Shown: piece by piece, positions 43,099 through 53,194 of the stretch | Position numbering within the stretch: the stretch's first letter is position 1 | Layout: each line of letters starts with the position of its first letter | NCBI GenBank assembly: GCA_947501635.1 | Contig: CANMWT010000002.1 | Span: forward strand, 372,001 to 436,000 | Direction of reading: 5' to 3' | Source of the DNA: an uncultured Roseobacter sp. | GTDB lineage: Bacteria > Pseudomonadota > Alphaproteobacteria > Rhodobacterales > Rhodobacteraceae | DNA: 64,000 nucleotides | Notes under the pieces: generated by a model | The model's database searches: none | The model's input: only the letters and a program-made list of their open reading frames with translations | What the model was told of the DNA's origin: nothing | Program-made: the position numbers and the translations under genes

Positions 43099-43611
43099 AT
43101 GAGTATTCTGGACCCCATCAAATCGGAAGGCATGCCTTCCACGCACAGCCAGGGATTCATGGTTGGTTATCTTGAGGCGCTGTCGCTGGTCGAGCGTTTG
43201 CACCGTCTCTTGCTCGACGTCATCAAGGATGAGTTTGAGCGTGTCGGTGTGTTGGAAATCAATGCGGTTCAGGCGCTGCTTTTGTTCAACATCGGTGACA
43301 ACGAGGTCACCGCCGGCGAATTGAAAAGCCGTGGCTACTATCAGGGCAGCAATGTCAGCTACAACCTTAAGAAGCTGGTAGAGATGGGCTATATGCACCA
43401 CCAACGTTGCGAGATTGATCGCCGATCAGTGCGGGTAAAGCTCACTGACAGGGGCTGTAAGATTCGCGACGTTGTATCTGATCTTTTCTCACGTCATGCG
43501 GATGGGCTGCAGCAGAAAGGCGTTCTGGGGCCGGAGGGTATTGACGACATCACGCGGTCGCTCAAACGGATGGAGCGGTACTGGACAGATCAGATCCGTT
43601 ATATTTACTGA
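43099..43611 (+). CDS. ldtR: MarR-like regulator, LdtR family
   Basis: 170 residues. YLEALSLVERLHRLLLDVIKDEF leads into a winged helix (VTAGELKSRGYYQGSNVSYNLKKLVEMGYM, wing CEIDRRSVRVKLTDRG). This matches LdtR, known to control L,D-transpeptidase and stress genes in Liberibacter and relatives. GGAG stands 7 bases before the ATG. The family function in roseobacters is not established. It ends 7 bases over the convergent DUF1194 gene. Confidence 0.85.
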   Translation: MSILDPIKSEGMPSTHSQGFMVGYLEALSLVERLHRLLLDVIKDEFERVGVLEINAVQALLLFNIGDNEVTAGELKSRGYYQGSNVSYNLKKLVEMGYMHHQRCEIDRRSVRVKLTDRGCKIRDVVSDLFSRHADGLQQKGVLGPEGIDDITRSLKRMERYWTDQIRYIY

Positions 43612-44321
43612 AGGCGGCCGATCACCAGACCTTCCAACTCTCGTTTTAGCTTGCGCGTCATGGCATCTGCGTAATCCTCAAACCCGAGGGATGTCTGAAC
43701 AAAAGCATCGTCGCCGATAATGACTTCGGCCCGAAAGTAAGAAGAAAGTTCACCGATTTCGACCTGGCGCGCATCGCCGGATGCAGGGGCATCTGATCCG
43801 ATGACGAGCGCGTTGATCGTCACACCCTGCGTATTGATCGCGTCTTTAACGTCGCGCGGACGCGGACCAAGGTTTGATTTGCCGTCACCGGAAATGTCCA
43901 AAGTGTGCTTCCAGCAGGCACTCTGAAGCGCTAACTGCGCCGCACCGAACTGCATTGCACGGCCCAATGCCGTGCCGGGGGCCGCGCCGCGCCGCTCCGT
44001 TTGTGCGAGGGCCACGCTCACTTCGGTCAGCGTCTGACGATTGGCAATAGACGTCCATGGCACCAGAATATGCTGGTCGTCCGGACCGCTCCATTCGAAA
44101 ACCAGTACCGATACAGGGGCATTGGGCATTGCCATCAGTGTGTTGACAATGTCGGGGTGGTTCAGCGCGGTTACCAGGCCATCGAGTTGCAGGCGGTACT
44201 CGCGCAAGTCGACAGACCCCGATACGTCAAGACCCAAAGCCAAAGCCTGTCGACAACCCGCGTCTGAGACCGTGGCAAACAGGCTGAGAAAAGCCGCAGA
44301 GAGTACGCGGGCTGCACGCAT
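43605..44321 (-). CDS. DUF1194 VWA-like exported protein (copy 2)
   Basis: 238 residues with a signal peptide (MRAARVLSAAFLSLFATVSDA). A von Willebrand A-like domain follows with a MIDAS-type metal motif (LGLDVSGSVDLREY), SGDGKSNLGPRP and the C-terminal FVQTSLGFEDYADAMTRKLKREL. Its ATG overlaps the stop of the neighbouring copy (TAATG). It is a tandem paralogue of that protein, of equal length. The role is unknown; exported VWA proteins often mediate adhesion or complex assembly with divalent metal. Confidence 0.85.
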   Translation of the reverse strand: MRAARVLSAAFLSLFATVSDAGCRQALALGLDVSGSVDLREYRLQLDGLVTALNHPDIVNTLMAMPNAPVSVLVFEWSGPDDQHILVPWTSIANRQTLTEVSVALAQTERRGAAPGTALGRAMQFGAAQLALQSACWKHTLDISGDGKSNLGPRPRDVKDAINTQGVTINALVIGSDAPASGDARQVEIGELSSYFRAEVIIGDDAFVQTSLGFEDYADAMTRKLKRELEGLVIGRLQ

Positions 44322-45037
44322 TACAACCCTTTCGGGTCAGTGCCCGCGCGCAGCAAACCCATCACGGGCGGCGTCAGCTCCCGCTCCAGTTTGCGCCGCA
44401 TTGCCCGTTCATAGTCTTCAAAGCCGTTGGCAATTTCGACAAACGCGCCCGGACCCCGAATAACCTGCCCCTTGTAAAAGGCAATCAGGCCGGTTTCTGC
44501 CTCATAGTCTGCCCCGTTCACGACCAGACCATTTACCGTCACCCCATCAAAGGGGAACTCCGCATAGGCCTGTGCGGGGCTGAAGCCTTCGTTGTTCTGG
44601 CCGTCACCGGCCAGATCCAGCGTTTTGGCCAGACAGGCGGGCCCGCGTTCCAGCATGCCGGCGCCATAGCCCAAAGCATAGCCCATGGCCGTGGGGAAAT
44701 CGTTGTGGCTGCGCTTGCTTGCGGCAAGCGCCTCTGCGGCCCCGACGAGTTTGGCGCGGCTGTCGATCACCGTCCAGTCCAGCAAAACTTCCTGATTGTA
44801 CCGCCCCGACCACTCGTAAACGGCCAGTGCGACAGGCAGATCCGACGCAAAAAACGCAGCTTCCACCTCGGGTGAAATCAGTGCAGCGACAATTCCGTTG
44901 CGCTGCAGCGCGTCCTCTGCCGCATCGACGGAGCTTGAAACATCCATTGCAAGCAAAAGTGCCAGTCGGCACTCTGCCGCATCCACCGCCGCACCGCCAA
45001 CCGCAAGCGCTATGAAAAGAGCGCCCGTCTTTACCAA
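44321..45037 (-). CDS. DUF1194 VWA-like exported protein (copy 1)
   Basis: 238 residues if started at TTG 45037, which sits over the end of gloA. It gives a good signal peptide (VKTGALFIALAVGGAAVDA) and the same length as its tandem paralogue. The MIDAS-like motif is LLLAMDVSSSVDAAEDAL, then LAGDGQNNEGFSP and the shared end GAFVEIANGFEDYERAMRRKL. The longer frame lies in gloA and is not coding. The two copies form an operon behind gloA. Confidence 0.8.
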   Translation of the reverse strand: MVKTGALFIALAVGGAAVDAAECRLALLLAMDVSSSVDAAEDALQRNGIVAALISPEVEAAFFASDLPVALAVYEWSGRYNQEVLLDWTVIDSRAKLVGAAEALAASKRSHNDFPTAMGYALGYGAGMLERGPACLAKTLDLAGDGQNNEGFSPAQAYAEFPFDGVTVNGLVVNGADYEAETGLIAFYKGQVIRGPGAFVEIANGFEDYERAMRRKLERELTPPVMGLLRAGTDPKGL

Positions 45038-45459
45038 TGCCCGGTGTTCTCCATGCTGGCCCAAGGCTCCGCCGGTGGCAGGTCTTCCCCTTCCTGCAAC
45101 AATTCTATGGAAATGTTGTCGGGCGACCGCACAAAGGCCATATGACCATCGCGCGGCGGGCGGTTGATGGTGACCCCGTTGTCCATCAGATGCTGGCACA
45201 CTTCGTAAATGTTAGAGACACGATAGGCGAGATGCCCGAAGTGCCTGCTGTCGCTTGGCAACCCGTCGTCACCATCCCAGTTGTAAGTTAATTCGATCGG
45301 GCATTCTTCCTGACCCGGAGGGGCCATGAAAAGAAGGGTAAAGCGACCACCCTCACTGTCCCAGCGACGCGTCTCTTTGAGGCCCAGCAATTCGTAGAAC
45401 GCAATTGATTTTTCAAGGTCTTTCACCCGGACCATTGTGTGCAGATACTTCAATGCCAT
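45031..45459 (-). CDS. gloA: lactoylglutathione lyase (glyoxalase I)
   Basis: 142 residues with two beta-alpha-beta-beta-beta motifs. It shows MVRVKDLEKSIAFYELLGLKE, ELTYNWDGDDGL and HLAYRVSNIYEVC, with metal ligands His and Glu (the last in ISIELLQEGE). The enzyme converts the methylglyoxal-glutathione adduct to S-lactoylglutathione. It lies upstream of the DUF1194 pair, whose first start overlaps its last codons; a shared transcript is likely but functional linkage is unclear. Confidence 0.92.
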   Translation of the reverse strand: MALKYLHTMVRVKDLEKSIAFYELLGLKETRRWDSEGGRFTLLFMAPPGQEECPIELTYNWDGDDGLPSDSRHFGHLAYRVSNIYEVCQHLMDNGVTINRPPRDGHMAFVRSPDNISIELLQEGEDLPPAEPWASMENTGHW

Positions 45460-46614: not shown

Positions 46615-47316
46615 TCAGCATTTCTTGTTACCTTTGCCGTTGCCGTTGCCTGTGACAGTGCAACCTGATGTTCCAGTGTCGCCACCGGTATTTGTGGCGG
46701 TATCACCGCCCGTGCTGGCCGTTCCGGTGTCGCCGGCGCCTGTATTCGTGGTATCGCCGGTGTCACCGGTAGATGTTGTGTCGTCGGCGCTGGTGGTTTC
46801 AGTTGTTCCGTCGGTACCGGCGTCCGATGGATCCGGGCCCGTGTTTTGCGTCGCGTTGTCATCTGTGCTTGTCGTGTCCGAAGCTGTTTCTGTGCCACCG
46901 GTGTTGGTGTCGTCGGCTTCTGTACCGGTCGTGTCGGTATCTGCAGTTTGCGTCTCCTCACCGGTGTTGGTTTGGTCGTTGTACCCTCCTGTGTCAGTGG
47001 TTTGAGTACCACCGCCATCAGTTGTACCGGTATCGGTCTCGCCCTCAGCTTCTTTTCCATAGACCGAAGGTGGGCCGCTGCCGTCAAATGTGTGGTTGGG
47101 GCCACCGCTGGTGAAAGTCGTGCCCGAGTTGTTGACCATCACATTTGCGCTGGTCCGCATTTCGGCCAGCATGAAAACGCCAAGCGTTGCCAGAAATGCC
47201 GCACCAACAACGAAATCAACAGTTGTGACACCGCTTTCATCCTGAATGAAATGCCGCGCGTTTCGCTTAGTTCCGTCGAAGCGGGGCAGAGAAATACCTT
47301 TGATAGCTCGCAACAT
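46615..47316 (-). CDS. TadE/Flp-pilin-like anchored protein with Thr/Asp/Gly/Asn tail
   Basis: 233 residues. The N-terminal 51 residues look like a TadE or Flp pilin segment: basic residues, then DESGVTTVDFVV and a hydrophobic helix to about residue 51. The remaining 180 residues are a low-complexity tail rich in Thr, Asp, Gly, Asn and Ser with imperfect TDTG/TNTG repeats, ending with a Gly/Asn/Lys stretch and a Cys. GAGAG stands before the ATG at 47316. No Tad genes are nearby. It is probably an exposed or secreted cell-surface protein; function unknown. Confidence 0.8.
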   Translation of the reverse strand: MLRAIKGISLPRFDGTKRNARHFIQDESGVTTVDFVVGAAFLATLGVFMLAEMRTSANVMVNNSGTTFTSGGPNHTFDGSGPPSVYGKEAEGETDTGTTDGGGTQTTDTGGYNDQTNTGEETQTADTDTTGTEADDTNTGGTETASDTTSTDDNATQNTGPDPSDAGTDGTTETTSADDTTSTGDTGDTTNTGAGDTGTASTGGDTATNTGGDTGTSGCTVTGNGNGKGNKKC

Positions 47317-47568
47317 TGTCAAATTCTCTCATAAAGTTGTACCAATCACCCAGCCTGAACGTACATGCCGGGTGTGGTCGCAAAAGGGAGAAAGTAGGGA
47401 GACTTCACCGCGAAAGTTTGGCTTGAATCGGGCGCTCTCACTTTTCTGGAACCAGTCGTCAGAAATACACCCGATTGGTGCGCGATACTGGGTGGTTTCG
47501 TCGCAAAAACCGACGCTCAAGCACGCAGGTGCTTGTTCGACACTCTCAGGAAAACAGAAAAAATCCGG

Positions 47569-47964: not shown

Positions 47965-48282
47965 ATGCAACTTTTCGGTCTGAAGACATGTGACACTTGC
48001 CGCAAGGCGTTAAAATCTCTGCCACAGGCGGAATTTGTGGATGCCCGCGCGCAAGGGGTGCCCGATACGCTTCTTTCTGCTGCGCTTGCGGCTTTCGGTG
48101 ATGGGCTGGTAAATACGCGCTCTACAACCTGGCGGGGCCTGAGCGAGGCCGAGCGTGGGCAAGATGCTTTGTCGCTCTTAAAAGCGCACCCCACACTTAT
48201 GAAAAGGCCCTTGATTGTTGAAGGTGACCAGATGTGGCTGGGCTGGACAAAACAGGTTCAGACCGAACTCGGCGCGATCTGA
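47965..48282 (+). CDS. Spx/ArsC-family thioredoxin-fold protein (YffB-like)
   Basis: 105 residues. The N-terminal CDTCRKALK gives the CxxC motif of the ArsC/Spx fold, and LVNTRSTTWRGLSEAE and HPTLMKRPLIVEGDQMWLGW are close to YffB-type proteins. The Arg set of true arsenate reductases is not clearly present, so arsenate activity is doubtful. It could be a glutathione-dependent reductase. It is divergent from the cold-shock gene. Confidence 0.85.
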   Translation: MQLFGLKTCDTCRKALKSLPQAEFVDARAQGVPDTLLSAALAAFGDGLVNTRSTTWRGLSEAERGQDALSLLKAHPTLMKRPLIVEGDQMWLGWTKQVQTELGAI

Positions 48283-48293
48283 ACCTTCGCTTT

Positions 48294-48839
48294 TCAAGCG
48301 TCGAGGCGACGCTTCAGTATCGTGTCGACAGATAGTGGGCCTGCGCCCTTTACGACCAAAACCAGCAGCAGGAAAACCCAAAAGGCGCGTTGGTCCAGGA
48401 TCAGGCTGTCGGGGATTTTGTCGAACCATGCGCCCAGTGTCTGCGGGTCTTCAAGGCGTCCGTGCCCGATCAGGTCGGTCGCGGATTGCACGATCACAAA
48501 CCCGATCATCCCCAGCGCGGACAGCCGTGTGGCGAGGCCCAGAACGATCAAGGCCGGCAGAACGAACTCTGCGATCGTGCCGCCTGTCACCACAGCCCAA
48601 TGAAAGAGCGTCAGCTGCGACGTGTCGTATGAAATCTGCTCCATTACTCTGGGAAAGATTTGCGCATAGGCACCGACAGACGGCTGGAAAATGCCAAAGA
48701 GGCCGTCGCCAAGTTTCGTCAGGCCAGATACCCAGAAATACATCAGCAAGGTTCCGGCAAAGACCAGTCTGGCCAGTGTAGTAAGCAGCCAGTCCGCACG
48801 GGAGAGGCGGTCGGTCAGTGCGGTATAGAGGGTAATCAT
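48294..48839 (-). CDS. DoxX-family membrane protein of the bufferin operon
   Basis: 181 residues with four hydrophobic segments. ARLVFAGTLLMYFWVSGLTKLGD and LVLGLATRLSALGMIGFVIVQ are DoxX-type. DoxX relatives are frequent companions of DUF692/DUF2063 genes and may supply electrons or quinone contact. It overlaps the DUF2063 gene by 4 bases, the last gene of the cluster. Confidence 0.82.
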   Translation of the reverse strand: MITLYTALTDRLSRADWLLTTLARLVFAGTLLMYFWVSGLTKLGDGLFGIFQPSVGAYAQIFPRVMEQISYDTSQLTLFHWAVVTGGTIAEFVLPALIVLGLATRLSALGMIGFVIVQSATDLIGHGRLEDPQTLGAWFDKIPDSLILDQRAFWVFLLLVLVVKGAGPLSVDTILKRRLDA

Positions 48840-49591
48840 GGTGTTTCCTTTGTAGTATAATCAACGAGCGCTTGCGCATTCAGAGCCAGCGCCAGAGAAG
48901 CGGTCAGATCAAAATCCGGATATATCTCAAGGATTTCGGACGTGGCGGGGCCCAAGGCGTGCCCCGAATTGAGCTTGTCCAGCCAGTCGGCCATACCGGG
49001 GGCAAGCAAATGGGGCTGCGGATCGAACTCCGGTCTGGCGACCAGAACATCTTGTGCGATGGCGCGAGGCTTCGGCGCTGAGGGCAGCATGTTGAACGCC
49101 CAGATGTCATACAGGGGCCAGACTGACCGCAGTAGCACAGCCGAGGGGGCAAGCGAGAACCGTGCTTGCATCACGCGCTCTGGGTCTTGCAACTCTTTGG
49201 TCGCGACGGGCGGCGCATCTGCGGCGTGGTACGACCTGCGCATGGCAAAGTCGAGCTGTGCGCAAGCGCTTAGATACCTGATGTGCTGCAGCGGTTCGAA
49301 CCCGTCGAGAAATTCGGGGAAGTCTTTGCCGTAGAACATCATCAGCGGTGACGTGGGCGGATGCGCGCGCACATAAATCGCTGCCAGCTTGCCAAATGTC
49401 TCTGCGCCAAGCAGCTTGCGTACCAGCGGAAAGGCAGTCGCCAGAGCTTCTGAAAGAGAGACAACAACGTTGTTGCGATAGACCGAGAACCGCGTACCGG
49501 CCGCGTCGCCCTGCGCATCAAGCAATCCCGAAGGAACGGGTTGCTCCGCATCCAGCAGGGCCTTGCGGAAGATGTCCTGAGAAACTGTCAT
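48836..49591 (-). CDS. bufC: DUF2063 (BufC/HvfC-like) partner protein
   Basis: 251 residues. The N-terminal DUF2063 domain is visible ([48 protein letters not shown]), followed by [20 protein letters not shown] and a C-terminal helical part. DUF2063 proteins act as the recognition partner that presents the precursor peptide to the DUF692 enzyme. It overlaps both bufB and the DoxX gene by 4 bases, indicating fixed co-translation. Confidence 0.88.
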
Positions 49592-50442
49592 TGTACCGGC
49601 GACAAGGCGCGGGCAGCACGCATCGCTTCGTCGCGCAGGGTGGGCCAGTCGGGTACGTCATTGTCCCATTCGACCAGAACCGGCCGCGCACCAGTGTGCG
49701 CGAGCGTATAGTCAAGCAGGGCCCAGACGGGATCAACGACCGGTTTGCCGTGGCTGTCGATCAGCAACGGAGCACCCGCATCATCGGTGTCTTCATCATG
49801 CCCGCCCACGTGGATTTCGCCAACCGCTTCAAGCGGATAGGCGTCAATGTATCCTTGCGGCGAATACCCTAGATTGGTGGCTGAGATAAACACATTGTTG
49901 ACGTCCAGCAGCAAGCCGCAGCCGGTACGCCGCACCAGTTCGGCCAGAAAATCTGTCTCGCTCCAGGTGCTTTCGGCGAAAGCCAGATAGCTTGAGGGGT
50001 TTTCCAGCAGCATCTGCCGGCCCAAAATGTCCTGCACCTGATTGATATGTGCAGCGACGCGCTGTAGCGTCGCGTTTGTATAGGGCAGCGGCAGCAGATC
50101 ATTCAGAAATTCCGCACCGTGCGTGGACCACGCAAGGTGCTCTGAAAAGCTGGCAGGTTGCGTGCGCGCCATAAGTTCTTTCAACCGCGCAAGGTGGTCT
50201 GCGTCCAGCGCTCCTTCGCCGCCGATGCTCAGGCCGACGCCATGGACAGACAGGGCAAAACGCTCTTGCAATGCGCGCAGTTGCGCATGGGGCCGCCCGC
50301 CATCACCCATGTAGTTTTCTGCATGGACTTCCAGCCAGGCCACAGGCCCAGGCGCATCCATCAGATCGGCAAAATGCTGGGGTTTGTATCCGACGCCCGG
50401 TGCGGGCGGTAGCGTGTCAAAACGGGGCGAGGTATCAAGCAT
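49588..50442 (-). CDS. bufB: DUF692 multinuclear non-haem iron oxidative enzyme (MNIO)
   Basis: 284 residues of the DUF692 TIM barrel. [13 protein letters not shown] opens it, [15 protein letters not shown] carries a metal-ligand His and Glu, and [34 protein letters not shown] and [10 protein letters not shown] supply the remaining His/Asp/Glu ligands. MNIOs use two or three iron ions to oxidise cysteines in precursor peptides, giving thiooxazole or oxazolone-type rings. It is the modifying enzyme for the DUF2282 peptide upstream. Confidence 0.92.
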
Positions 50443-50488
50443 CGGGGCTCTCCGGATCTAGCGGTCAGCCGTATCGGTGGGGCATGCA

Positions 50489-50509
50489 TCCGGCGGGGTG
50501 ACCGCCGGA
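50489..50509 (-). terminator. intercistronic hairpin between precursor and MNIO genes
   Basis: TCCGGCGG (50489-50496) and CCGCCGGA (50502-50509) form a perfect 8-base-pair stem with loop GGTGA, placed in the 83 bases between the precursor and bufB. There is no T-tract. It could protect the upstream mRNA or partly end transcription, giving excess of precursor over enzyme. Confidence 0.5.
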
Positions 50510-50525
50510 CGCCAGATTGTCAGGG

Positions 50526-50831
50526 TTATGCCGGCAAGTCGCGGCTCAACTCTTCAAGCGAGCCTTTGCGCTCAGTGCCATCCGCCATATTCGGAAGCTC
50601 GATCTCGGCGCAGGTGCCTTTGTCGACGAGCGTCCAGGCGTTGCCCTGATAGTCGACAGTGGATGTTCCCGCGCATGTTGTGCCGGGCCCTGCCGCGCAG
50701 TCGTTGGCGCCAGCCAGCGAGACGCCATAGCATTTCTCTTTTGCGGCCGCGTCGGCTTGCGTTGTGCTTTGTGCAACGAAGGCTGCTGCAACTGCGCTGG
50801 CAAGGGCCACTGTTTTCATTGTGTTGGACAT
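50526..50831 (-). CDS. bufA1: DUF2282 precursor peptide, bufferin-type
   Basis: 101 residues. A signal peptide ([17 protein letters not shown] from residue 5) ends near residue 26-28. The mature part is a DUF2282 domain with four cysteines at 34, 45, 53 and 74 ([37 protein letters not shown]). In bufferins MNIOs convert some of these cysteines to copper-binding heterocycles. It is exported and should chelate copper in the periplasm. RBS GAGGAAG stands close to the ATG. First gene of bufA1-bufB-bufC-doxX. Confidence 0.9.
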
Positions 50832-50962
50832 GGTTTCTTCCTCTCTTGGCGACCTGTCGGTCAGTGATGGGGTAAATGTAACAAACCTCGGAGGACATAC
50901 CATTCACGAGGCTGTGTGTCACATCCACGTCAGCGGGATGTGCGCGAAACACCGTGATTCAC

Positions 50963-50999
50963 CAAAAACCCTGCCGAAATGTTTCAATTCCGGCAGGGT
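50963..50999 (-). terminator. rho-independent terminator of thrS
   Basis: On the minus strand ACCCTGCCG and CGGCAGGGT (outer arms at 50968-50976 and 50991-50999) form a 9-base-pair stem with a 14-base loop, followed by TTTTT (50967-50963). It lies 33 bases after the thrS stop and separates it from bufA1. Confidence 0.8.
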
Positions 51000-51032
51000 C
51001 GCAGACTGGATACGTGATTTTGGCGGCTTTTG

Positions 51033-52979
51033 TTACAACAAGTCCGGCGGCGTCGCTTCCCGTCCAAGTGCCTGTGTTACAGTCTCAAGGCTCTCGACGG
51101 TGGTTTTCTTTTCGCCAAGTCTCCGCACGGTAACCGTGCGTTCTTCTACCTCGCGCGCGCCAACAGCCAGAATGACCGGCACCTTGCCGACAGAATGCTC
51201 GCGTACCTTGTAGTTGATCTTTTCGTTGCGCAGGTCTGCCTCGGCGCGGACGCCGGCCGCCGACAAGGCGTTGACCACTTCCATCACATAATCGTCCGCA
51301 TCCGAAATGATCGACGCCACGACGACCTGACGCGGGGCAAGCCAGAAAGGCAGTTTGCCCGCGTGCTCTTCGATGAGGATACCGATGAACCGCTCGAAAG
51401 AGCCAAGGGTCGCGCGGTGCAACATGACGGGGCGGTGTTTGCCGCCATCTGCGCCGATGTAGGTGGCGTCCAGACGTTCGGGCAGGACAAAGTCCACCTG
51501 ATGGGTCCCGCATTGCCAGTCACGCCCGATCGCGTCTGTCAGCACGAACTCCAGTTTTGGCCCGTAGAACGCGCCTTCTCCGGGGTTGAGTTCCGGCTCA
51601 ATCCCGGCCTTGCGGGTGGCTGACAGCAGCGCGGCCTCTGCGCGGTCCCAGACTTCGTCGGAACCCGCACGGGTTTCTGGTCGGTCGGAGAACTTTACTT
51701 TGAAATTCTCGAATCCGAGGTCGCGGTAGATGTCGGACAGGAAGTCGATGTAGACAGCGGTTTCACTTTCGATCTGCTCTTCGGTGCAGAAGATATGCGC
51801 GTCATCCTGCGTAAAGCCGCGTACCCGCATGATCCCGTGCAAAGCGCCCGAGGGCTCATACCGGTTGCACGACCCGAATTCAGCCATCCGCAATGGTAAA
51901 TCGCGATAGGATTTGAGACCTTGTTTAAATATTTCCACGTGGCATGGGCAGTTCATAGGTTTTAGCGCGTTCACGGCCTTTTCACGCGCATGTTCCTCGT
52001 CAACCTCGACGATGAACATGTTCTCCTGATACTTCTCCCAATGCCCGGAGGCTTCCCACAGTTTGCGGTCCACAACTTGGGGTGTGTTAACCTCGACATA
52101 GCCACCTGCGCGCTGCCTGCGCCGCATGTAGTCCTGAAGCTCGGTGTAGATGCGCCAGCCATTGGGGTGCCAGAACACCTGACCCGGGGCCTCTTCCTGC
52201 ATGTGGAACAGGTTCATCTCGCGGCCAAGTTTACGGTGGTCGCGTTTTGCAGCCTCTTCCAGCATGTGAAGATGCGCCTTGAGCTTCTCCTTGCCGGTGA
52301 ACGCAACGCCATAGATGCGCTGCAACATCGCGCGATCACTGTCGCCGCGCCAGTATGCGCCCGCGATCGACATCAGCTTGAAGGCATCCCCCGGTACCTG
52401 TCCGGTATGTTGCAGGTGAGGCCCGCGGCACAAATCCTGCCAGTGGCCGTGCCAGTACATCCGCAAGGGCTCGTTACCGGGAATGGCTTCGATCAGCTCT
52501 ACTTTGTAGGGCTCGTTGTTGGCCTCGTAGAATTTGATCGCGCGGTCGCGCTCCCACACTTCGGTGGTGACTGGGTCGCGCCGGTTGATGATCTCTTTCA
52601 TCTTCTTTTCGATCACACCAAGGTCTTCGGGGGTGAAGGGCTCTGCGCGGTCAAAGTCATAGTACCAGCCGTCTTTGATAACCGGACCGATGGTTACTTT
52701 GGTATCAGGCCAGATTTCCTGCACTGCGCGGGCCATGATATGCGCAAGGTCGTGGCGCACAAGTTCGTTGGCCTGCTCTTCGTCCTGCATAGTGTGAATG
52801 GCAATACTGGCATCTTCCGTGATCGGCCATGCCAGATCGTAATGCGCGCCGTTCACGGTCGCTGAAATGGCCTTCTTGCGCAGCGAAGTGGAAATGCTTG
52901 CAGCGACATCGCCTGCAGTGACGCCAGCATCATAGCTGCGCGCGTTGCCATCGGGAAAAGTAAGAGAGATCTGGGCCAT
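51033..52979 (-). CDS. thrS: threonyl-tRNA synthetase
   Basis: 648 residues. It has a TGS domain at the N-terminus ([21 protein letters not shown]), a second additional (editing) domain with [17 protein letters not shown], and a class II catalytic core with motif 2 ([30 protein letters not shown]) and motif 3 ([20 protein letters not shown]). The zinc ligands Cys and His are in [10 protein letters not shown] and the following GTHQVDF. The anticodon-binding domain ends it. The ATG at 52979 has GGAG 8 bases upstream; a GTG is one codon earlier. Confidence 0.96.
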
Positions 52980-53194
52980 CACGGGCGCTCCTCGTCGGTT
53001 TGGCGCCTACGAGACGCCCGGTTGCGAAACCACCCGAACGACTGGCTGTCGCATGTGCACAGCGGCAGGCCAGCACCCGGATGGGGATATAGGCTGTCTA
53101 TTGCCGCGTGTCCGTTTGGGATGCAAGTGCTTCCCTTCAGGACTTGGTCAGCGTTGTAAAAATACCTGACCGCGCGCGGCAGGGCTAGGCGGTA

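What the first reader, a model, noticed from the sequence alone, without database searches (positions are those of the whole stretch)
48294..50831. Bufferin-type RiPP operon: DUF2282 peptide, DUF692 MNIO, DUF2063 partner and DoxX
The precursor has a signal peptide and four cysteines in [17 protein letters not shown] and KGTC, and the enzyme and partner genes follow with 4-base overlaps, so this is a complete unit. The family has only recently been recognised as copper-binding modified peptides made by MNIOs. Its presence in a roseobacter next to a multicopper oxidase suggests a copper-stress module. The ring chemistry formed on this peptide and the function of DoxX are not settled.
Basis: partly seen in the sequence, partly recalled or inferred. 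Interest (0 to 1): 0.82.

Follow-up and report, generated by a model that had tools for sequence, protein, structure and literature searches.

The report
Copper-buffering peptide operon in a roseobacter
This is a standard set of genes for making a small copper-trapping peptide, of a kind already known from other bacteria; what may be new is the conserved stretch of DNA in front of it, which looks like a different on-switch from the one described in relatives.

Summary
On the minus strand lie bufA (DUF2282, four Cys, 50831-50526), bufB (MNIO, 50442-49588), bufC (DUF2063, 49591-48836) and doxX (48839-48294). It is a bufferin-1 operon, a published family; NCBIfam's model for BufB is "bufferin maturase". 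BufB occurs in 19 of 19 genomes of the genus, DUF2282 in 106 of 149 of the family. The multicopper oxidase neighbour looks private to this genome: beside thrS in 1 of 20 genus MCO loci and 0 of 80 relatives. bufA and bufB do not overlap; an 83-nt gap with a hairpin separates them.

The possible news is the control. Described alphaproteobacterial operons use SigF/NrsF-type control. Here NrsF was not found, and a ~30-bp element of alternating CACG/CGTG half-sites precedes bufA. It lies within 500 bp of DUF2282 in 65 of 106 such genomes; NrsF lies within 4 kb in 12; none has both; 29 have neither. A TAnnnT box follows 24-25 nt later in 52 of 73 loci. This suggests an unidentified activator. Ordinary operon, apparently undescribed promoter type.

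The parts
50526..50831 (-). bufA: bufferin-1 precursor, 101 aa, Sec-type signal segment then DUF2282 domain with four Cys and a C-terminal [12 protein letters not shown] tail
   Evidence: DUF2282 E 2.3e-24; exactly four Cys in 79 of 79 BufA aligned, window included (the script looked for a four-Cys pattern, so fewer than four was excluded beforehand; the two dropped sequences L036 and L070 also show four); NCBIfam BufA2 only 17.5 bits against a cut-off of 60
49588..50442 (-). bufB: MNIO (DUF692) bufferin maturase, 284 aa
   Evidence: NCBIfam NF050167 373.8 bits, cut-off 310; sequence matches to 3BWW, 8HCI chain D and MbnB structures; His/Asp/Glu/Asn residues kept in at least 98% of 81 BufB
48836..49591 (-). 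bufC: DUF2063-type partner protein (PME-type 1), 251 aa
   Evidence: DUF2063 E 5.3e-25; model pLDDT 93.5 matches TglHI chain A and NGO1945 (3DEE)
48294..48839 (-). doxX: DoxX-family membrane protein, 181 aa
   Evidence: PF07681 29.3 bits, cut-off 23.6; found in 77 of 80 relatives, the other three contigs ending before it
50900..50934 (-). conserved upstream element, two tandem TSACG-N4-CGTGA-like dyads; proposed activator site
50875..50880 (-). TACATT, -10-like box 23 nt after the element (24-25 nt in 52 of 73 loci)
50486..50512 (-). 11-bp hairpin in the bufA-bufB gap
   Evidence: z -2.28 for the window gap
51033..52982 (-). thrS, conserved upstream neighbour, not part of the bufferin pathway
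   Evidence: Pfam; found in 79 of 80 relatives; ends within 350 nt of bufA in 69 of 79 measured, window included

Best explanation
A bufferin-1 operon. BufB, an iron-dependent oxidase guided by its partner BufC, converts the two central Cys of BufA to 5-thiooxazoles in the cytoplasm. Sec exports the peptide, the outer two Cys form a disulfide, and the product binds excess copper in the periplasm. DoxX is a membrane accessory of unknown role. Transcription starts at bufA's own promoter, driven by an unidentified activator bound to the element at 50934-50900 rather than by SigF/NrsF; the hairpin after bufA probably lets the precursor be made in excess. Shown here: genes, homology, conservation, predicted fold of BufC, the element and its spacing. 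Inferred: chemistry, export, copper binding, activator, hairpin role.
For: Family matches over curated cut-offs (Pfam for all four, NCBIfam for BufB). BufC model matches MNIO partner proteins. bufB/bufC 4-base overlap in 66 of 77 relatives. Copper induction of the Caulobacter homologues (PMC8224329 passages) and copper-chelating bufferins (PMC12452194 abstract). Element: within 500 bp of DUF2282 in 65 of 106 such genomes, never together with a linked NrsF (12); spacer columns after it fall to 0-0.41 bits; fixed distance to TAnnnT; no NrsF match in the own genome.
Against: No expression, mass or copper data for this organism. In Cupriavidus metallidurans the homologous cluster does not affect copper resistance (PMC8224329 passage; that strain has many other copper determinants). 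The BufA model is poor (pLDDT 50.4), so the disulfide geometry is untested. NCBIfam's HvfC and HvfX models hit BufC and DoxX well below cut-off. 29 of 106 DUF2282 genomes show neither element nor linked NrsF under the strict filters (four of these gave weak element hits). 7 of 80 named loci lack the element: L036 is cut off, L109 has SigF/NrsF, and L060, L076, L091, L100, L110 are unexplained. The loci are related, so part of the conservation is ancestry.
Confidence: 0.87

Rival explanations
1. The peptide is a chalkophore for copper uptake, like methanobactin, not a buffer against excess.
For: Same enzyme superfamily as MbnB; gonophorin, a thiooxazole peptide, binds copper (PMC12668002 passages).
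Against: The recurrent neighbours are thrS, an arsC-like gene and csp, none a transporter (only these genes were looked for). In Bordetella pertussis, inactivating the bufferin operon did not reproduce the copper-uptake mutant phenotype (PMC12914433 passage). Caulobacter homologues rise under copper excess.
Confidence: 0.06
2. The operon answers other thiol-reactive metals or oxidants first (chromate, cadmium, gold), with copper secondary.
For: SigF targets in Caulobacter respond to chromate and cadmium (PMC3511200 passages); gig genes respond to gold, silver and copper, and do not affect copper resistance in C. metallidurans (PMC8224329 passages). The promoter here is different, so induction cannot be carried over.
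Against: sigF loss in Caulobacter severely affected growth with copper, in contrast to chromate and cadmium (PMC8224329 passage). In Sinorhizobium, peroxide, cadmium and chromate did not raise reporter expression of the RpoE7 target (PMC6180224 passage).
Confidence: 0.2
3. The operon is transcribed by read-through from thrS or by SigF, and the conserved element is only inherited sequence.
For: thrS lies in the same direction, median 229 nt upstream over 79 loci. In the SigF scan 24 of 79 upstream regions had a match with at most 2 mismatches against 12 of 79 shuffled ones.
Against: At 1 mismatch or fewer the count is 1 of 79 against 2 of 79 shuffled. NrsF not found. Element columns reach 1.7-2.0 bits at the half-sites while the spacer falls to 0-0.41, and 52 of 73 have TAnnnT at a fixed distance, which plain ancestry does not easily give.
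Confidence: 0.12

Closest known systems
Caulobacter bufferin-1 operon (CC3254-CC3257; DUF2282, DUF692, DUF2063, DoxX)
   Same: Same four gene families in the same order (PMC3511200 passages). That CC3254 is the bufferin-1 precursor is recalled.
   Different: Caulobacter uses SigF/NrsF and GTAACC-N16-CGAA; here no NrsF match, no such box at 1 mismatch or fewer, and another element instead.
Sinorhizobium meliloti SMb20530-SMb20527 with RpoE7 (ECF16)
   Same: Four-gene unit with DUF692 and DUF2063 genes (PMC6180224 passages).
   Different: Divergent rpoE7-ecfR7 and an ECF16 promoter; neither is seen beside the operon here.
gig/GIG operons of Cupriavidus and Legionella
   Same: Named in print as the same cluster type (PMC8224329 passage; start of the PMC5413113 abstract).
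   Different: Not compared by sequence here.
TglHI and MbnBC
   Same: MNIO plus partner protein: BufB by sequence, BufC by fold to TglHI chain A.
   Different: Different precursors and products (PMC10880893 and PMC3621798 abstract starts). MbnC (7FC0 chain C by my reading) matched BufC only at E 1.5.

Membership tests
Bufferin-1 (Buf1) biosynthetic operon | DUF2282 precursor with four conserved Cys | tested here: met
Bufferin-1 (Buf1) biosynthetic operon | N-terminal Sec signal peptide | tested here: inconclusive
   Hydrophobic segment by Kyte-Doolittle score and a likely ADA cleavage site by reading; no signal peptide predictor was at hand
Bufferin-1 (Buf1) biosynthetic operon | MNIO maturase of the BufB type | tested here: met
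   NF050167 373.8 bits, cut-off 310
Bufferin-1 (Buf1) biosynthetic operon | DUF2063 + RRE partner (PME-type 1) | tested here: met
   DUF2063 over its cut-off; model matches 3DEE, the DUF2063+RRE reference, at E 4.3e-5 (PMC12452194 passage). Hits to isolated RRE proteins have E above 2 and do not count. The HvfC model is below its cut-off
Bufferin-1 (Buf1) biosynthetic operon | DoxX gene in the cluster | tested here: met
Bufferin-1 (Buf1) biosynthetic operon | modified Cys II and III, disulfide I-IV | not testable with these tools
   needs mass spectrometry or NMR; the BufA model was too poor
Bufferin-1 (Buf1) biosynthetic operon | copper binding and growth benefit under copper stress | not testable with these tools
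   needs experiment
SigF/NrsF (ECF16) regulon | NrsF anti-sigma gene in the genome | tested here: not met
   0 matches in the own genome; the Caulobacter control was found
SigF/NrsF (ECF16) regulon | GTAACC-N16-CGAA promoter before bufA | tested here: not met
   best has 2 mismatches with spacer 15, reached by 69 of 200 shuffles
Buf2 bufferin | six or twelve Cys BufA2 precursor | tested here: not met
   four Cys; NF050166 17.5 bits, cut-off 60

The most novel reading that the evidence does not exclude
In most roseobacters that carry it, the bufferin operon has left the SigF/NrsF regulon and answers to a still unknown, nearly single-target transcriptional activator that binds a ~30-bp array of four alternating CACG/CGTG half-sites ending about 24 nt before the -10 box.
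Probability: 0.65. Interest if true: 0.5.

Novelty: new member of a known kind. Interest (0 to 1): 0.35.

Why it matters
The operon itself adds one more case to a large published family. The promoter element would matter if confirmed: it predicts an unknown regulator, perhaps metal- or thiol-responsive, in an abundant marine group, gives a short probe to fish it out, and shows the same peptide module wired to two different switches within one bacterial family.

Tried and rejected
Multicopper oxidase as partner: rejected (0 of 80 relatives; thrS within the 1.5-kb flanks of 1 of 20 genus MCO loci, the window's own). Six of the 80 loci (L036, L044, L052, L061, L075, L109) reach too little past thrS to show it.

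SigF promoter before bufA: rejected for this locus; the excess at 2 mismatches is told under the third rival.

C-terminal tail of BufA as a roseobacter invention: mostly rejected. GSL or GGSL near the C-terminus is also seen in many class-level DUF2282 proteins; the linker and RDLP ending look more lineage-specific.

Hairpin as terminator: the scan finds no terminator-like site in the bufA-bufB gap. A stem of 6 or more pairs occurs in 77 of 78 gaps (not L033) and 51 of 78 have z below -2, against 19 of 79 for the 70 nt upstream of bufA; L087 was left out because its computed gap was negative. The role stays inferred.

Known RNA family in 48200-51300: none up to E 1. BufA structure model: too poor to use.

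Regulator search. Between thrS and bufA, L057 shows a PNPOx protein, L072 a Hint-domain protein, L073 nothing I could name, and L109 SigF, NrsF and a TetR-family gene. Of the eight off-target element places, one weak one (L186, E 0.022) lies between a LysR-type regulator and a luciferase-like gene. Searched at E 1e-50, that LysR is in 19 of 149 family genomes and not in the own genome, so I reject it as the regulator.

BufB tree (quick method, 20 of 134 inner branches strongly supported): the element label needs 10 changes, SigF 4; SigF-type L011 and L109 fall among element loci. The class-level loci were labelled 'none' without an NrsF test. A lead only.

No paper describing the element was found in the searches (listings and passages; the library lacks most subscription journals); one search was swamped by 'buffering'. 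The founding bufferin paper (Leprevost and co-workers) is recalled, not read.

Full report
What is there. The four genes run on the minus strand: bufA 50831-50526, bufB 50442-49588, bufC 49591-48836, doxX 48839-48294. Profile matches are far above chance: DUF2282 2.3e-24, MNIO 1.2e-104, DUF2063 5.3e-25, DoxX 1.4e-6. NCBIfam's BufB equivalog scores 373.8 bits against a cut-off of 310. BufA has four Cys, as do the 79 BufA aligned, window included (the script searched for a four-Cys pattern). L036 (start cut off) and L070 (masked bases) were dropped there but also show four. bufB/bufC and bufC/doxX overlap by four bases; bufA and bufB do not.

How widespread. DUF2282 is found in 106 of 149 genomes of the family and 47 of 142 in the class draw, which holds the own genome and one more of the family. 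BufB is in 19 of 19 genomes of the genus, and the own genome has one MNIO. The multicopper oxidase is in 0 of 80, and thrS lies beside only the window's own among 20 MCO loci from 16 of 19 genus genomes. The usual neighbourhood is thrS-bufABC-doxX-arsC-csp; the oxidase looks like a private neighbour.

How it most likely works. BufB matches structures 3BWW, 8HCI chain D (the DUF692 protein of TglHI) and MbnB by sequence, and many His, Asp, Glu and Asn residues are kept in at least 98% of 81 sequences; I did not map them to iron ligands. BufC has no sequence match in the PDB up to E 0.1, but its confident model (pLDDT 93.5) matches TglHI chain A (E 6.2e-6; taken as TglI) and NGO1945/3DEE (4.3e-5); hits to the RRE proteins TbiB1 and PqqD have E above 2 and are no evidence alone. 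For Buf1, modification of the central Cys and a disulfide between the outer ones is in print (PMC12452194 section 14), with 5-thiooxazoles assigned for bufferin 1 (PMC12668002 passages). The Caulobacter homologues are induced by copper (PMC8224329 passages); the same paper notes that the Cupriavidus cluster does not affect copper resistance. Chemistry and function are inferred for this peptide. DoxX keeps many polar residues in all 78 sequences aligned, but I have no mechanism for it.

The promoter. Stacking the upstream regions showed a conserved element, at 50934-50900 in the window. Half-site columns reach 1.7-2.0 bits while the spacer after it falls to 0-0.41. The 71 sites stacked were chosen for at most 5 mismatches to a pattern, so pattern columns are partly selected; 72 of 79 real upstream regions reach that, against 9 of 79 shuffled ones, and 36 of 79 have at most 2 mismatches, against none shuffled. 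It reads yTsACG-N4-yGTGA-nn-CACG-N3-yyGTGA: two tandem dyads, roughly palindromic as a whole, so the model often matches the other strand too. A sequence model from 61 sites was run over 149 family genomes: 71 have a match at E 0.05, in 65 of them within 500 bp of DUF2282. Of 78 matched places 70 are at bufA, five of these being the second strand of a site already counted, and 8 lie elsewhere. In the own genome it is the only model match at E 0.05; by pattern there is one perfect site, one with 2 mismatches and 18 with 3, while the reversed control pattern gives 26. Of the 30 best-scoring DUF2282 loci in the family, 20 have the element (three weakly, 12-15 bits), 7 are NrsF-linked, and 3 have neither (with positions). 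None of the 28 non-family class loci searched has it. Of the 80 named loci, 73 have it, but 60 of these trained the model; of the other 20, 13 have it.

Two wirings. NrsF is in 22 of 149 family genomes, one match below the curated cut-off; it is within 4 kb of DUF2282 in 12, none of which has the element there. NrsF anywhere occurs in 1 of 65 element genomes (a match below cut-off with stops) against 16 of 41 other DUF2282 genomes (Fisher 3.5e-7, which ignores relatedness). Of eight SigF-type loci (NrsF beside bufA), six have GTAACn-N16-CGAA with one mismatch before bufA, reached by 2-6 of 200 shuffles, and two have two mismatches; none of ten element loci tested reaches one mismatch, nor do the eight 'neither' loci tested. 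A TAnnnT box starts 24 or 25 nt after the element in 52 of 73 loci, no other position having more than 8; in the window it is at 23. This fits an activator site abutting a promoter without a clear -35 box; that reading is inference.

Limits. The element search scored about 45 candidates per genome with strict filters. 29 of 106 DUF2282 genomes were unassigned; four of them showed weak sites in the finer search. The regulator is unknown; a LysR gene beside one weak off-target site was tested and rejected. One stronger off-target site (E 8.9e-4) lies 70 nt before a YkuD L,D-transpeptidase gene in a genome without a DUF2282 match.

Verdict.

Noticed in passing
L183:5316-5345 (G112 contig 7, 58315-58344, minus): The bufA promoter element also occurs 70 nt before a YkuD L,D-transpeptidase gene in a family genome without a DUF2282 match.
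   Followed up: partly
L186:4739 (G071 contig 4): A weak element match (E 0.022) lies between a LysR-type regulator and a luciferase-like monooxygenase gene; the LysR is in 19 of 149 family genomes at E 1e-50, not in the window's genome.
   Followed up: yes
L037:7145-7513 and equivalents in L042, L045, L049, L071, L083: A ~122-aa membrane-like protein (no Pfam match for the L037 copy) lies between doxX and the arsC-like gene on the opposite strand in the six relatives looked at; the window has only 11 bases there.
   Followed up: partly
L084: A record titled Nocardioides marinus carries a roseobacter-type bufferin operon and falls in the tree among roseobacters such as Leisingera; probably a mislabelled or contaminated assembly.
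   Followed up: no
G007 contig 18 and G100 contig 45: Two DUF2282 domains about 340-440 bp apart, probably tandem bufA genes.
   Followed up: no
window 46615-47322, minus: 235-aa frame with a pilin-like N-terminus by my reading and a long Thr/Gly/Asp-rich tail; no Pfam match up to E 0.01.
   Followed up: no
window 43605-45199, minus: Two adjacent DUF1194 genes.
   Followed up: no
window 50486-50512, minus, and the bufA-bufB gaps of relatives: Hairpin between bufA and bufB; a stem of 6 or more pairs in 77 of 78 gaps while the sequence varies.
   Followed up: partly
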